Below, in pieces: positions 776 through 7,636 of a stretch of 64,000 nt of DNA. The position numbers and the translations under genes are program-made. Position 1 is the first letter of the stretch; each line of letters starts with the position of its first letter. The DNA lies in assembly GCF_000020505.1 (NCBI RefSeq), contig NC_011027.1:158501-222500 (forward strand), in the 5' to 3' direction. The notes under the pieces are model-generated. The model ran no database searches. It saw only the letters and a list, made by a program, of their open reading frames with translations, and was not told where the DNA came from. Source of the DNA: Chlorobaculum parvum NCIB 8327 (GTDB lineage Bacteria > Bacteroidota > Chlorobiia > Chlorobiales > Chlorobiaceae).

Positions 776-1107
776 TGAACTTCATCGAATCGGAACTTCT
801 GCGGATCTTCGTCGGTGAGCAGGAAAAGCTGCACCACCGCCCGCTCTACGAACTCCTCGTCAGCGAAGCCCTCGAACGCGGCATGGCCGGCGCAACGGTT
901 TTCCGCGGCCTCCTCTCCTTCGGCTTGCGCCACAAAGTGCACACCTCAAAGATTTTCGAACTCGCCGGAGAGCTGCCGATGGTGATCGAAATCGTGGACA
1001 TCACCGAAAAGATCGAAGAATTCCTGCCGGTAGTGGAGACCCTACTGAAAGAGTCCGGAGCGCAAGCGCTGGTGACGCGGGAAGCGGTGCGGCAGTGGAC
1101 GACGTAG
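772..1107 (+). CDS. DUF190 domain protein, CrcB partner
   Basis: A 111-residue soluble protein of the DUF190 family. It resembles small PII-like ferredoxin-fold proteins and includes the typical stretches LRIFVGE near the N-terminus, LYELLVSEALERGMAGATV in the middle and PMVIEIVD about residue 67. The gene overlaps the crcB stop by ATGA, which suggests translational coupling. DUF190 genes are often next to crcB, so a regulatory or accessory role in fluoride resistance is a reasonable inference, but none is proven. The next 180 bases are AT-rich and mark the change to the accessory island. Confidence 0.85.
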   Translation: MMNFIESELLRIFVGEQEKLHHRPLYELLVSEALERGMAGATVFRGLLSFGLRHKVHTSKIFELAGELPMVIEIVDITEKIEEFLPVVETLLKESGAQALVTREAVRQWTT

Positions 1108-1293
1108 GATTAGAGAAAAGAATTGAAAATCAGCAAGAATACCAAGTCAAAAAGCTGAACTAATTAAAGGTCTTTCTGGTTTTTTCATAAGATTTAAGTA
1201 AATTCACTTCTTCAATTAGACGCATCTCAAGCAAATATCCTGTTTAGTGTTTTTTTGTGCACTAAAACGAACCAATTGTTAGAGGAGGAAACT

Positions 1294-1506
1294 ATGAGTG
1301 CTGATATTACCTCTCGGTTCATGGAGAATGGCGTACTCATTCCAGACACTCTTGTGTTCAATTTTTCGGTACCAAAGTCAGAGCCAAATCTTAAGAGCTC
1401 CACCCACTTTCCGGACTTATCCTCCCAAAAATGCGCAGATTGTTATGAGCAACAATGTCAGCCATCAATTCCCGCGAACGTCGATTACCCCCACCCAATC
1501 GCCTAA
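1294..1506 (+). CDS. Short ORF upstream of and overlapping the SDH-type protease
   Basis: A 70-residue ORF starting at the ATG at 1294, which has a very strong ribosome binding site (AGAGGAGGAA at 1281-1290). It overlaps the next reading frame by 62 bases. The product contains a CxxC (CADC) and no recognisable domain. The following protease frame has no obvious ribosome binding site at its ATG (1445). This ORF may therefore be a translated leader, a separate small partner, or the true N-terminus of the protease joined by a frameshift. A run of five C at 1488-1492 would allow the last option: a one-base skip there reads directly into the protease frame. Confidence 0.5.
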   Translation: MSADITSRFMENGVLIPDTLVFNFSVPKSEPNLKSSTHFPDLSSQKCADCYEQQCQPSIPANVDYPHPIA

Positions 1507-2263
1507 ATATTGGGCGAAGGAAAAGGATCGGTATATAAGGCAGTTGCTCATTTCGGATATCCAAGAGCTAACAAATAGACCTCTAATAGTTTATTTTGCA
1601 CAGTTAGATCAACAAATCAACTTTACAGACCCTGATGATTTGTCGGAAATCATATCCGGCATTGGTGCTGAGGAAGTTGATTTGTTGATTCAAACCCCAG
1701 GAGGGGTTGTTGATGCAACTGAAAAGCTCATTGGAATCTTGCGTCATAAGTTTAAGAAATGGCGAGTAATTGTTCCAAGTTGGGCAAAATCAGCGGGGAC
1801 TGTGATTGCATTATCTGCCGAAAAAATAGTCATGGGTATTAACTCAGAGCTAGGCCCTATTGATCCTCAATGGCAACAACAAGGGGGGCTTTCAATCCCT
1901 TGTGAAATAATTAGTCAAGATCCTTCTCAACCCCATCACCTTAAAAAACTTGCTGAAATGGCAGTCAACAGAATGCGATCTTTAGCCAAGTTATTACTGA
2001 AAAATGGGATGATGCAGGATAAGTCAGATGAAGAGATTGAAGCTGTCTTAAAAAAACTATCAAATCCATCTTCATATAATTCTCACGCAGCTGTAATAGA
2101 TTACCATGAAGCTATAGATATTGGGCTTTCTGCTGAATACTTGAAACATGATGATGATCTCTGGAAAAAGCTTTGGCTTCTTTATTGCCTTTATGATTAT
2201 GATACTAAGTCTAAAGGATTAGGGCGGCTGATTGAGGGAGAGGTATTAAGTATTTCTAGATAA
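1445..2263 (+). CDS. Serine dehydrogenase proteinase (SDH/ClpP-like) family protein
   Basis: A 272-residue protein from the ATG at 1445; the frame is open further upstream to 1298, but that part looks non-coding. It matches the SDH-proteinase family, which has a ClpP/crotonase-like fold. The features are DLLIQTPGGVVDATE near residue 79 (oxyanion-type glycine motif), PSWAKSAGTVIAL with the presumed nucleophile Ser116, and SELGPIDPQW around residue 135. No signal peptide or membrane helix is visible. The gene is clearly more AT-rich than its neighbours, which points to recent transfer. In other genomes this family is often found in accessory or defence-like settings; here the role is unknown. 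Confidence 0.72.
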   Translation: MSNNVSHQFPRTSITPTQSPKYWAKEKDRYIRQLLISDIQELTNRPLIVYFAQLDQQINFTDPDDLSEIISGIGAEEVDLLIQTPGGVVDATEKLIGILRHKFKKWRVIVPSWAKSAGTVIALSAEKIVMGINSELGPIDPQWQQQGGLSIPCEIISQDPSQPHHLKKLAEMAVNRMRSLAKLLLKNGMMQDKSDEEIEAVLKKLSNPSSYNSHAAVIDYHEAIDIGLSAEYLKHDDDLWKKLWLLYCLYDYDTKSKGLGRLIEGEVLSISR

Positions 2264-2299
2264 ACAGAAATCTTATTCTAAGAAAGAGAATTAAAACAA

Positions 2300-2332
2300 A
2301 AAAGGGCCGCCTTTTCGGGCAGCCCTTTTTTC
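2300..2332. terminator. Intrinsic terminator, left repeat copy
   Basis: A hairpin built from AAAGGGCCGCC and GGGCAGCCCTTT with a short TTTTC loop has A-rich and T-rich flanks, so it can act in both directions. It would terminate the protease gene on the + strand. An identical hairpin follows the real hemL at 4190-4222. Confidence 0.8.
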
Positions 2333-2355
2333 GTCTCTGTGCGTCCTCTTGCAGC

Positions 2356-2499
2356 TTATTTGGTAGCGGCGATGAGGGCGTTGTAGTTTGCCTTGACCGT
2401 CTTCTCCAGATCTTCGTCGGTGTGGACGAAGCTGGTGAACATGGCCTCGAACTGCGACGGGGCGAGGTAGATGCCCTGGTCGAGCATGGAGTGGAAGTA
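2356..2499 (-). pseudogene. Truncated 3' fragment of hemL
   Basis: This is the last 47 codons plus stop of glutamate-1-semialdehyde aminotransferase, without any upstream part. It differs from the intact hemL tail at five coding positions. Four are silent and one is Val to Ile, so the fragment seems to derive from a once-functional hemL allele rather than from a decayed copy. It is bounded at 2499 by foreign sequence. Confidence 0.88.
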
Positions 2500-2507
2500 T
2501 CCCTGAA

Positions 2508-2630
2508 CGGGTATAATTCTGTTTTTATTGAAGCAATTATATTAGATCGGGTATAAATCCATCAAAACCTCTTGCATTTATACCCGTAATGGTATAGCTT
2601 CCTTCTAAGTTATATCAACTATACCCGATC
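2508..2630. promoter_or_regulatory. Probable HipB operator array and promoter region
   Basis: Four copies of the core GGGTATA lie just before hipB: direct at 2509 and 2549, and inverted at 2579-2585 and 2619-2625. The pair 2548-2558 / 2576-2586 forms a perfect 11-bp inverted repeat with a 17-base spacer. GATCGGGTAT at 2545 is mirrored at 2621-2630. By analogy with HipAB operons, which are autoregulated through repeated operators ahead of hipB, these are probably HipB binding sites that overlap the promoter. This is inference from pattern and position. Confidence 0.65.
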
Positions 2631-2645
2631 AGTGTCTCGAGGCTT

Positions 2646-2852
2646 ATGAATGCTTTATCTGAATTTGTTCGTAATCGGCGCAAGTCTTTGGGCTTGACCC
2701 AGCCTGAGCTGGCGGAGAAGGCTGGCACGGGGCTGCGGTTTATCCGTGATCTCGAACAGGGGAAAAAGACGTTGCGGATGGACAAGGTGAACCAGGTGCT
2801 CGCCCTGTTCGGTTACGAGCTTGGCCCTGTTCGGCAGGAGTGGGAGGAGTAA
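2646..2852 (+). CDS. hipB: HipB-like antitoxin, XRE-family DNA-binding protein
   Basis: A 68-residue helix-turn-helix protein of the XRE/HipB type. The HTH spans about residues 5-58 (RKSLGLTQPELAEKAG, then FIRDLEQGKKTLRMDKVNQVLALFGYELG). It is shorter than E. coli HipB (88 residues) and lacks a long C-terminal tail. It is the first gene of a tight hipB-hipS-hipT operon (3-base gaps). The repeated GGGTATA sites upstream are its likely operators. In HipBST systems of this kind HipB works mainly as DNA-binding repressor and complex partner, while the small HipS protein neutralises the kinase. Confidence 0.85.
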   Translation: MNALSEFVRNRRKSLGLTQPELAEKAGTGLRFIRDLEQGKKTLRMDKVNQVLALFGYELGPVRQEWEE

Positions 2853-2855
2853 GCC

Positions 2856-3179
2856 ATGCGGAAAGCCGAGGTGAAATATCTTGACCGAACAGCGGGCTGG
2901 CTTGTGCAGGATGAGGAGGGCTATCATTTCCTGTACGATCAGGCGTACCTCGAATCGGAAAATCCCAAGCCGGTCAGTTTGACGCTGCCGTTGCAGGCTG
3001 CTGCGTATTCGAGCAAAACCATGTTTCCGTTTTTTGACGGCCTGATTCCCGAAGGCTGGCTGCTCGATGTTGCCGAACGGAATTGGAAAATCAATCCGCG
3101 AGATCGCATGGGGCTTTTGATGAACTGCTGCGCGGATTGCATCGGGGCGGTCAACGTGCATCCTGTTCTTTCGGAGTAG
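2856..3179 (+). CDS. hipS: HipS-like protein (HipA N-terminal subdomain 1)
   Basis: A 107-residue protein equal to the N-terminal subdomain of HipA (couple_hipA), standing alone. The recognisable part is FFDGLIPEGWLLD at residues 59-70, followed by DRMGLLMNCCADCIGAV. In E. coli O127 HipBST the separate HipS is the antitoxin and inserts a tryptophan of the matching loop into the kinase active site. Trp68 here is in the equivalent GW position. The gene lies 3 bases after hipB and 3 before the kinase gene, so the three are one transcript. The antitoxin role is inferred from the family and gene order. Confidence 0.85.
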   Translation: MRKAEVKYLDRTAGWLVQDEEGYHFLYDQAYLESENPKPVSLTLPLQAAAYSSKTMFPFFDGLIPEGWLLDVAERNWKINPRDRMGLLMNCCADCIGAVNVHPVLSE

Positions 3180-3182
3180 CTT

Positions 3183-4139
3183 ATGGAACGGCGATGTCTC
3201 TATTGCTATGAACCGCTGGAATCCGGTGAGACGGATTTTCATCCGAAATGCAGTCGGAAAATGTTCGGAACGGCCACTCCGCCGCTGTTGCCTTACGACG
3301 AAAACCAGCTCGATGAGCTTGCGTTGGAGGTCGTTCGGAGCCATACCGCAATTACCGGCGTACAGCCCAAACTTTCGCTGCACCTGGCGTCCAACGGAAA
3401 AACCCGCTCGCCTCAACGCTTCACCATCGTCGGCTTGTGGGGCGGCTATATCCTCAAGCCGCCATCACCGCGCTTCCCGCAATTGCCGGAAATCGAGGAT
3501 TTGACGATGCACATGGCCGAGGAGTTGCGGATTGCAACCGTTCCGCACAGCCTGATTCGCATGAAATCGGGAACGCTGGCCTACCTGACTCGCCGCATCG
3601 ATCGTACGAAGAAGGGAAAGCTGCACATGGAGGATATGTGCCAGATTACCGGACGTCTCACGGAAAACAAATACGACGGTTCGTATGAGCAGATCGCAAA
3701 AGCGATCCGCCGTTTTTCGGTCAATCCGGGTTTCGATGTCATCAACTTTTTCGAGATGGTGCTGTTTTGCTTTCTGACCGGTAATGCCGATATGCACCTG
3801 AAAAATTTTTCCTTGATCGATATTCCCGAAAAAGAGGGCGTGAACCTTGCCCCGGCTTATGACCTCGTCTCCACCGCGCTCGTGATGCCATCCGACGATG
3901 AAGAGCTTGCCCTGACGCTCAACGGCAAGAAAAAACGGCTGATGCTCACGGATTTTCAAGCAGCGTTGAAAACATTGTCGGTTGACGAGGTGGTGCAGGA
4001 TCGAGTGTTCCGGAAATTCAGCAAGGCTCGTCCAGCTCTGGAAAACCTGATTGACAAGAGTTTCCTTGACCCGGAACTCAAGCTGGCCTACAAAGAGCTT
4101 GTCATAAAGAAATATCGGCAGATTGGGCTGGCTTCATAA
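3183..4139 (+). CDS. hipT: HipT-like serine/threonine kinase toxin
   Basis: A 318-residue HipA-type kinase without the N-terminal subdomain, which is encoded separately just upstream. Visible kinase elements are the Gly-rich loop region TAITGVQPKL at residues 55-64, the ATP lysine in YILKPP (Lys92), the catalytic loop GNADMHLKNFS (Asp203, Asn208) and the metal-binding Asp227 in APAYDLVS. The active-site residues look complete. E. coli HipT has two autophosphorylated serines in the loop (SIS); at those positions this protein has Ala56 and Thr58. The N-terminus has a Cys5-x2-Cys8 ... His20-x2-Cys23 pattern that could bind zinc. Known HipT targets aminoacyl-tRNA synthetases; the target here is unknown. 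Confidence 0.85.
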   Translation: MERRCLYCYEPLESGETDFHPKCSRKMFGTATPPLLPYDENQLDELALEVVRSHTAITGVQPKLSLHLASNGKTRSPQRFTIVGLWGGYILKPPSPRFPQLPEIEDLTMHMAEELRIATVPHSLIRMKSGTLAYLTRRIDRTKKGKLHMEDMCQITGRLTENKYDGSYEQIAKAIRRFSVNPGFDVINFFEMVLFCFLTGNADMHLKNFSLIDIPEKEGVNLAPAYDLVSTALVMPSDDEELALTLNGKKKRLMLTDFQAALKTLSVDEVVQDRVFRKFSKARPALENLIDKSFLDPELKLAYKELVIKKYRQIGLAS

Positions 4140-4189
4140 CTGCGTTCGCTTGCACATTCAACCCAATCCCCAAAATCATCCACAAACAA

Positions 4190-4222
4190 AAAAGGGCCGC
4201 CTTTTCGGGCAGCCCTTTTTGC
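4190..4222. terminator. Bidirectional terminator between hipT and hemL
   Basis: A GC-rich hairpin AAAGGGCCGCC / GGGCAGCCCTTT has A and T tracts on each side. It lies between convergent hipT (+) and hemL (-) and would serve both. Confidence 0.8.
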
Positions 4223-4245
4223 GTTTCTGTGCGTCCTCTTGCTGC

Positions 4246-5541
<1,296 letters not shown>

Positions 5542-7087: not shown

Positions 7088-7636
7088 ATGATGAAGAGGG
7101 TACAAACGATGCGGACGCTGCTGATTGCTTTGGCGGCGGTTATGATGATGTTCGGAACGGCTCGTGCCGGATGGGATCCGGCTGACGAGGCGAATGCCGA
7201 GCGGACAATCGGAAAGTTCAGGAAAGAGGATCCTTCTCTTGAGCGTTTCTTTTCAAGGGCTTACGGTTACGCGGTCTTTTCGGATATTTACAAGGGCGGC
7301 TTTATGGTGATCGGTGGAGGTCACGGTAAAGGTATCGTTTATGAGCACGGCGTGCCTATCGGCAGGTCAACGGTGACGCTGGTCAATGTTGGTCCGCAGC
7401 TTGGTGGACAGGCGTTTTCCGAGATCATTTTCTTCAAGGATCAGGCCGCACTTGCCAATTTTACGAAAGGCAATTTCGAGCTGAGCGCACAGGCTGGCGT
7501 GGTGCTTGTTCAGGCGGGCATGGCTACCAATACCGATTATTCGGATGGCGTTGCCGTGTTTGCGATGCCGAATGCCGGTATCATGGGTGAGGCGACCATT
7601 GGCGGCCAGAAGTTCAGCTTCAAGCCGGGACGGTAA
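7088..7636 (+). CDS. SYLF (Ysc84-like) domain exported protein
   Basis: A 182-residue protein with an N-terminal signal sequence (RTLLIALAAVMMMFGTARA, cleavage expected after ARA) and a SYLF/Ysc84 lipid-binding domain: AYGYAVFSDIYKGGFMVIGGGHGKGIV, then a Gly- and Ala-rich beta region ending NAGIMGEATIGGQKF. A periplasmic or outer-membrane-associated location is likely. The ATG at 7109 is an alternative start and has the better Shine-Dalgarno (GAAGAGG at 7093-7099). The gene stands alone before gatB, 50 bases away. The biological role of bacterial SYLF proteins is poorly known. Confidence 0.82.
   Translation: MMKRVQTMRTLLIALAAVMMMFGTARAGWDPADEANAERTIGKFRKEDPSLERFFSRAYGYAVFSDIYKGGFMVIGGGHGKGIVYEHGVPIGRSTVTLVNVGPQLGGQAFSEIIFFKDQAALANFTKGNFELSAQAGVVLVQAGMATNTDYSDGVAVFAMPNAGIMGEATIGGQKFSFKPGR

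What the first reader, a model, noticed from the sequence alone, without database searches (positions are those of the whole stretch)
2646..4139. Three-gene HipBST-like toxin-antitoxin operon in a green sulfur bacterium
Seen: hipB (68 aa), a stand-alone HipA N-terminal subdomain (107 aa, with FFDGLIPEGW) and a kinase lacking that subdomain (318 aa), spaced by 3 bases each. Known: in E. coli O127 HipBST the small HipS is the antitoxin and HipT the kinase. Inference: this is the same architecture in a distant phylum, in an obligate anaerobic phototroph, with an unknown kinase target.
Basis: partly seen in the sequence, partly recalled or inferred. Interest (0 to 1): 0.72.

Follow-up and report, generated by a model that had tools for sequence, protein, structure and literature searches.

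The report
Split HipA toxin–antitoxin operon, Chlorobaculum
A green sulfur bacterium carries an intact three-gene toxin–antitoxin operon (DNA-binding regulator, small antitoxin, toxic protein kinase) of a type already reported in its wider group; the less ordinary part is a strictly conserved, probably zinc-binding, mini-domain at the start of the kinase.

Summary
The split is genuine. All 20 other Chlorobiaceae loci with a full-length homologue, and all 78 broader loci with enough upstream sequence, have separate hipB-hipS-hipT; none is fused and several have hipS and hipT in different frames. Sequence and fold assign it to HipBST, nearer the Legionella subtype than E. coli O127. Systems of that subtype were already reported as widespread in the FCB superphylum, Chlorobiota named (PMC10653801), so the "distant phylum" novelty fails. 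[quoted passage not shown] coli HipBST, carries a CxxC…HxxC quartet invariant in 101/101 relatives, a likely zinc finger that is degenerate in sister clades; (ii) the Gly-rich loop reads AIT, the position whose alanine mutant abolishes E. coli HipT toxicity, so toxicity should not be assumed; (iii) TATACC-N6-GGTATA operators about 41 bp apart precede hipB; (iv) a 206-bp copy of the hemL 3' end brackets the module, in a hemL hotspot that holds a different TA pair in one relative. Toxicity, neutralization and kinase target are untested.

The parts
2294..2499 (.). 206-bp partial copy of the hemL 3' end plus its terminator (copy 1, upstream of the operators)
   Evidence: 97% identical to 4184-4389; the exact junction into the hipB promoter is shared with G001
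2498..2515 (+). putative HipB operator 1, TATCCCTGAACGGGTATA
   Evidence: 1 mismatch to TATACC-N6-GGTATA
2538..2555 (+). putative HipB operator 2, TATATTAGATCGGGTATA
   Evidence: 2 mismatches
2579..2596 (+). putative HipB operator 3, perfect palindrome TATACCCGTAATGGTATA
   Evidence: 0 mismatches; a site with 0-1 mismatch lies about 59-70 nt before hipB in all 21 loci; best match by chance in shuffles is mostly 4-5 mismatches
2620..2637 (+). degenerate fourth site (left half TATACC only)
   Evidence: aligns with better palindromes near -27 in several relatives
2646..2852 (+). hipB, 68-aa Xre-type HTH regulator
   Evidence: TIGR03070 E 1.6e-25
2856..3179 (+). hipS, 107-aa stand-alone HipA N-subdomain-1 (putative antitoxin)
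   Evidence: PF13657 E 1.4e-25; HipS(Lp) E 5.7e-14
3030..3059 (+). HipS FFDGLIPEGW motif, Glu66 and Trp68
   Evidence: E66 99/99, W68 97/99
3183..4139 (+). hipT, 318-aa HipA-like kinase core without N-subdomain-1 (putative toxin)
   Evidence: PF07804 E 2.7e-45; AlphaFold2 pLDDT 90.6; HipT(Lp) 7wcf VIA-align Z 38.1
3195..3251 (+). HipT N-terminal mini-domain CxxC-x11-HxxC (C5, C8, H20, C23), putative zinc site
   Evidence: quartet invariant in 101/101; pLDDT 92-96
3348..3371 (+). HipT Gly-rich loop AITGVQPK
   Evidence: Ser57-equivalent is Ala56, Ser59-equivalent is Thr58; pLDDT under 50, i.e. flexible
3789..3809 (+). HipT catalytic motif DMHLKNF (Asp203, Asn208)
   Evidence: D203 invariant, N208 99/101
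3852..3866 (+). HipT Mg-binding motif PAYDL (Asp227)
   Evidence: D227 99/101
4184..4389 (.). hemL 3' end plus terminator (copy 2, the intact gene; hemL 4246-5541 on the minus strand)

Best explanation
This is a HipBST-type (tripartite, split-HipA) toxin-antitoxin module. Proposed mechanism: HipB dimers bind the phased TATACC-N6-GGTATA operators and repress the operon, helped by HipS-HipT. HipS sits on HipT where N-subdomain-1 sits in HipA, with E66/W68 holding the Gly-rich loop outward so that ATP cannot bind. When HipS is lost or outcompeted, HipT phosphorylates a cellular target and stops growth. The HipT mini-domain is probably a structural zinc finger. Shown here: genes, homology, predicted fold of HipT, conservation, operator-like sites, purifying selection. 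Inferred from E. coli/Legionella work: HipS-HipT inhibition, kinase activity, toxicity. Unknown: the target. The TrpS target of E. coli HipT cannot be carried over, because neither TrpS nor GltX rescues the closer Legionella HipT.
For: Domain hits. HipT(Lp) and HipT(Ec) structures are the best sequence and fold matches; the complete HipT chains align from model residue 1-3, i.e. including the mini-domain, while HipA structures align only from about residue 29-36. Conserved operon in 20 Chlorobiaceae and 78/78 broader loci, never fused. Catalytic D203 in 101/101, N208 and D227 in 99/101, HipS W68 in 97/99; the only two HipS that lost W68 pair with the only two HipT that lost N208 and D227. Operators conserved in position. 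dN/dS mostly 0.03-0.25. Mechanism from PMC10627512 and PMC9325769.
Against: Loop is AIT: the corresponding E. coli change S57A (AIS) completely abolished toxicity (PMC10627512), so toxicity may differ. A HipS-HipT read-through model did not place HipS (HipS pLDDT about 35). No expression, toxicity or binding data.
Confidence: 0.82

Rival explanations
1. The module is not a growth-stopping toxin but a regulatory kinase/repressor complex: HipT with an AIT loop is weakly active or non-toxic and HipBST mainly regulates its own or other promoters.
For: AIT equals the non-toxic S57A state of E. coli HipT; one relative pair (L021/L022) keeps HipB and HipS under purifying selection (dN/dS 0 and 0.03) although Mg ligands N208 and D227 are lost.
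Against: Catalytic residues are intact here. All 101 relatives keep at least one Ser/Thr at the two loop positions. [quoted passage not shown] No second operator cluster was found in the window (rest of the genome not scanned).
Confidence: 0.13
2. The split is a sequencing frame error in one hipA gene.
For: hipS and hipT are in frame here across the TAG stop plus 3 nt, as a single wrong base could give.
Against: 20/20 Chlorobiaceae and 78/78 broader loci are split; stop codons differ; L007-L009, L016 and many Bacteroidota loci are out of frame or overlapping.
Confidence: 0.01
3. The module is a decaying leftover of a mobile element with no present function.
For: Patchy presence (21 of 86 Chlorobiaceae genomes); bracketing hemL fragments; hipT remnant at hemL in G020.
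Against: All three frames intact, purifying selection and conserved operator-like sites.
Confidence: 0.04

Closest known systems
HipBST of Legionella pneumophila (Lpg2368-2370) and its FCB homologues (PMC9325769, PMC10653801)
   Same: Operon order, stand-alone HipS, short HipT with mini-domain; best sequence (E 1.6e-46) and fold match (TM 0.89, Z 38, 32% identity); reported as widespread in FCB including Chlorobiota
   Different: HipT(Lp) is in the S-aliphatic-Q loop group against AIT here; the Legionella-like clade in the tree has a CPIxY mini-domain that lacks most of the metal quartet
HipBST of E. coli O127:H6 (PMC6581861, PMC10627512)
   Same: Three genes, HipS Trp (W65 there, W68 here), mini-domain, catalytic motifs
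   Different: HipT more distant (E 1.2e-16, TM 0.77-0.80); dual-phosphoserine SIS loop not present; HipB 68 aa here against 107 aa; TrpS target not shown
HipBA (E. coli K-12, Shewanella)
   Same: Kinase core fold, HTH regulator, palindromic operators
   Different: HipA is one chain and lacks the mini-domain; HipB is the antitoxin there

Membership tests
HipBST | Tricistronic order hipB-hipS-hipT | tested here: met
HipBST | HipS is a stand-alone HipA N-subdomain-1 | tested here: met
   PF13657/TIGR03071 over nearly full length; HipS(Lp) hit
HipBST | HipT lacks N-subdomain-1 and keeps Gly-rich loop, catalytic and Mg-binding motifs | tested here: met
HipBST | HipT N-terminal mini-domain absent from HipA | tested here: met
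   complete HipT structures align from residue 1-3, HipA structures from about residue 29-36
HipBST | HipS Trp inserted beside the HipT Gly-rich loop | tested here: inconclusive
   W68 present and 97/99 conserved; read-through AlphaFold2 model gave HipS pLDDT about 35
HipBST | HipT toxic, HipS (not HipB) neutralizes | not testable with these tools
   needs expression assays
HipBST | HipB represses the operon promoter | tested here: inconclusive
   conserved phased palindromes upstream; binding untested
HipBST, E. coli subtype | Ser-aliphatic-Ser dual autophosphorylation motif | tested here: not met
   AIT
HipBST, E. coli subtype | TrpS is the target | not testable with these tools
   TrpS with KMSKS is present in the genome, but that is not diagnostic
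HipBST, Legionella subtype | Clusters with HipT(Lp) rather than HipT(Ec) | tested here: inconclusive
   Sequence and fold closer to Lp; the CCHC clade (100/97) groups at weaker support (92/69) with a CPIxY clade whose loops (mostly S[I/V]Q) resemble Lp, but the Lp sequence itself was not put in the tree
HipBA | Single continuous hipA | tested here: not met

The most novel reading that the evidence does not exclude
The HipT mini-domain of unknown function is ancestrally a metal-binding finger. It is intact (CCHC) in this FCB clade and CCCC in other rows, and lost in the E. coli-like and Legionella-like clades. In these bacteria the Cys/His site could act as a zinc- or redox-sensitive switch that releases HipS or changes target choice, giving HipBST an input that I know of for no Hip system.
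Probability: 0.15. Interest if true: 0.62.

Novelty: new member of a known kind. Interest (0 to 1): 0.3.

Why it matters
It settles that the split-HipA arrangement in green sulfur bacteria is a real, conserved operon and not an error. It gives an evolutionary reading of the HipT mini-domain (a probable zinc finger that is degenerate in the two subtypes with solved structures). It shows natural loops that sit badly with the E. coli rule that both loop serines are needed for toxicity, and supplies a natural kinase-dead/Trp-less pair. All of these are directly testable at the bench in E. coli.

Tried and rejected
Frame-error hypothesis: rejected. Folding HipS and HipT together: the first alignment of mixed HipS/HipT rows was misaligned (not used); the read-through fold of 427 residues gave a poor HipS part, so no claim about Trp68 geometry. 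Operator search over the rest of the window: two 2-mismatch sites (23474, 41135), the latter inside a SecY-like coding sequence; treated as chance. PADLOC: only weak matches to candidate family PDC-M03 and to HTH models, no named defence system. Target inference from TrpS KMSKS: not diagnostic, dropped. Literature searches for zinc or cysteine in HipT found none in the open papers checked, which does not exclude subscription papers or supplements.

Full report
Observation. Family models assign HipB (TIGR03070), HipS (PF13657, TIGR03071) and HipT (PF07804) well above cut-offs. The window is G000:C1:158501-222500 of a 2,289,249-bp one-contig genome with a single HipA_C gene. From memory that size equals Chlorobaculum parvum NCIB 8327; the genus is supported because contig G007:C95 has the same length as a record titled Chlorobaculum sp. 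(L074).

The split is real. A search of 86 Chlorobiaceae genomes found 21 with a full-length homologue (64-100% identity), this one included. All 21 have separate hipB, hipS and hipT in the same order, with hipS-hipT gaps of 0-4 nt; the intergenic stop is TAG, TGA or TAA depending on the locus, and in L007-L009 and L016 hipS and hipT are in different frames. Of 80 loci fetched from 84,980 species genomes (mostly Bacteroidota), 78 have hipB-hipS-hipT; the other two are cut by contig ends; none is fused. dN/dS is mostly 0.03-0.25 in the pairs compared, with one hipS pair at 0.42 on very few changes.

What kind. By sequence HipT is closest to HipT of Legionella (E 1.6e-46), then E. coli O127 HipT (1.2e-16), then HipA (about 1e-7 to 1e-5). 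The AlphaFold2 model (pLDDT 90.6, pTM 0.90) matches HipT(Lp) 7wcf at TM 0.89 and HipT(Ec) at 0.77-0.80; structural realignment gives Z 38.1, about 32 and about 24 for HipT(Lp), HipT(Ec) and HipA. Complete HipT structures align from model residue 1-3, HipA only from about residue 29-36, so the N-terminal mini-domain is a HipT feature and is present here. PMC10653801 already reports Legionella-type HipBST as widely distributed in the FCB superphylum, naming Chlorobiota. The finding is a member of a known system in a group where it was known to occur.

Details that are not routine. First, the mini-domain quartet (C5-x2-C8, H20-x2-C23) is invariant in all 101 HipT compared. The model orders it (pLDDT 92-96) as a turn with CxxC followed by a helix at 21-28 that begins at HxxC, the layout expected of a small zinc finger (inference; ligand distances not measured). 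A wider phylum search brought in more divergent HipTs. Their mini-domains are CPIxY...YSxxGL (loops mostly S[I/V]Q, some S[I/V]G, the Legionella-like form), CPGTL...YS (loop mostly SIS, the E. coli-like form) or a second Cys-rich form, CxxC...CxxC. In the tree the CCHC group is one clade (100/97), grouped with CPIxY at weaker support (92/69). The CxxC...CxxC form resembles zinc ribbons (DZR_2 E 3.7e-4, below cut-off). PMC10627512 calls the E. coli mini-domain 'of unknown significance', and the open HipT papers checked do not mention zinc in it. The reading that the mini-domain is an ancestral zinc finger, degenerate in both subtypes with solved structures, is my inference.

Second, the Gly-rich loop. 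E. coli HipT needs both Ser57 and Ser59; S57A (AIS) is non-toxic. Here the triad is AIT. Across 101 relatives triads vary (TVT, TLT, AVT, TIT, AIT, TIP and others), but every one keeps Ser or Thr at one of the two positions. Regulation must differ from E. coli, or the kinase is weak. The published grouping of 48 HipTs already includes loops with Thr and with a non-phosphorylatable first position, so the loop type is not new in itself.

Third, a natural experiment: HipS Trp68 is present in 97 of 99; the two exceptions (W68A, L021 and L022) are paired with the only two HipTs that lost N208 and D227. They are close relatives, so this is one event, but it fits Trp68 being needed only against an active kinase.

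Fourth, operators: TATACC-N6-GGTATA occurs with 0, 1 and 2 mismatches at 2579, 2498 and 2538; the window has five matches with up to 2 mismatches against 0.19 expected, three of them in this promoter. In all 21 Chlorobiaceae loci a site with 0-1 mismatch lies about 59-70 nt before hipB, with further sites about 41 bp away, as expected for a HipB autorepressor (inference).

Surroundings. A 206-bp copy of the hemL 3' end and terminator (2294-2499) repeats 4184-4389 at 97%, bracketing the module. G001 has the same arrangement with the same junction; G012 and G040 carry hipBST beside hemL without the upstream copy; G020 has a hipT remnant there; G007 carries hipBST on another contig with a degenerate hemL tail just downstream; in G002 a hemL tail copy brackets a different pair (Gp49/RelE-like toxin and HI1420-type antidote); in G019 about 0.45 kb separates DUF190 from hemL and no module is present. 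The gap between DUF190 and hemL is thus a small-module hotspot; how the hemL tail is duplicated is not established.

Not shown. Toxicity, neutralization, kinase activity, metal binding and target. The HipS-HipT read-through model was poor in HipS and supports nothing about Trp68 geometry. The TrpS gene has a normal KMSKS loop, which is not evidence for the target; in Legionella neither TrpS nor GltX rescued.

Noticed in passing
window 1107-4389 (between DUF190/crcB and hemL): Hotspot downstream of hemL: different relatives hold hipBST, a Gp49/RelE-HI1420 TA pair bracketed by a hemL-tail copy (G002, L055), AAA ATPases, a lone HI1420-type antidote (G014), or nothing (G019).
   Followed up: partly
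L058 9061-9197 (G007): hipBST on a contig other than that of hemL has a degenerate 75% hemL-tail fragment about 22 nt after hipT, as if the module moved with it; a second partial hipB-like stretch lies upstream at 7290-7382.
   Followed up: partly
window 1298-2263: ClpP-like SDH-type serine protease gene (PF01972, E 1.5e-20) of 40% GC in a 55.5% GC window, next to the hipBST insert; not found in the fetched hemL regions of relatives.
   Followed up: partly
L021, L022: HipBST with probably dead kinase (N208H, D227E, plus K92M in L021) and HipS W68A, yet HipB and HipS under strong purifying selection (dN/dS 0 and 0.03).
   Followed up: partly
L161-L178: The phylum holds at least four HipT classes by mini-domain (CCHC, CPIxY, CPGTL, CCCC), some coexisting in one genome (e.g. 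two classes in G322).
   Followed up: partly
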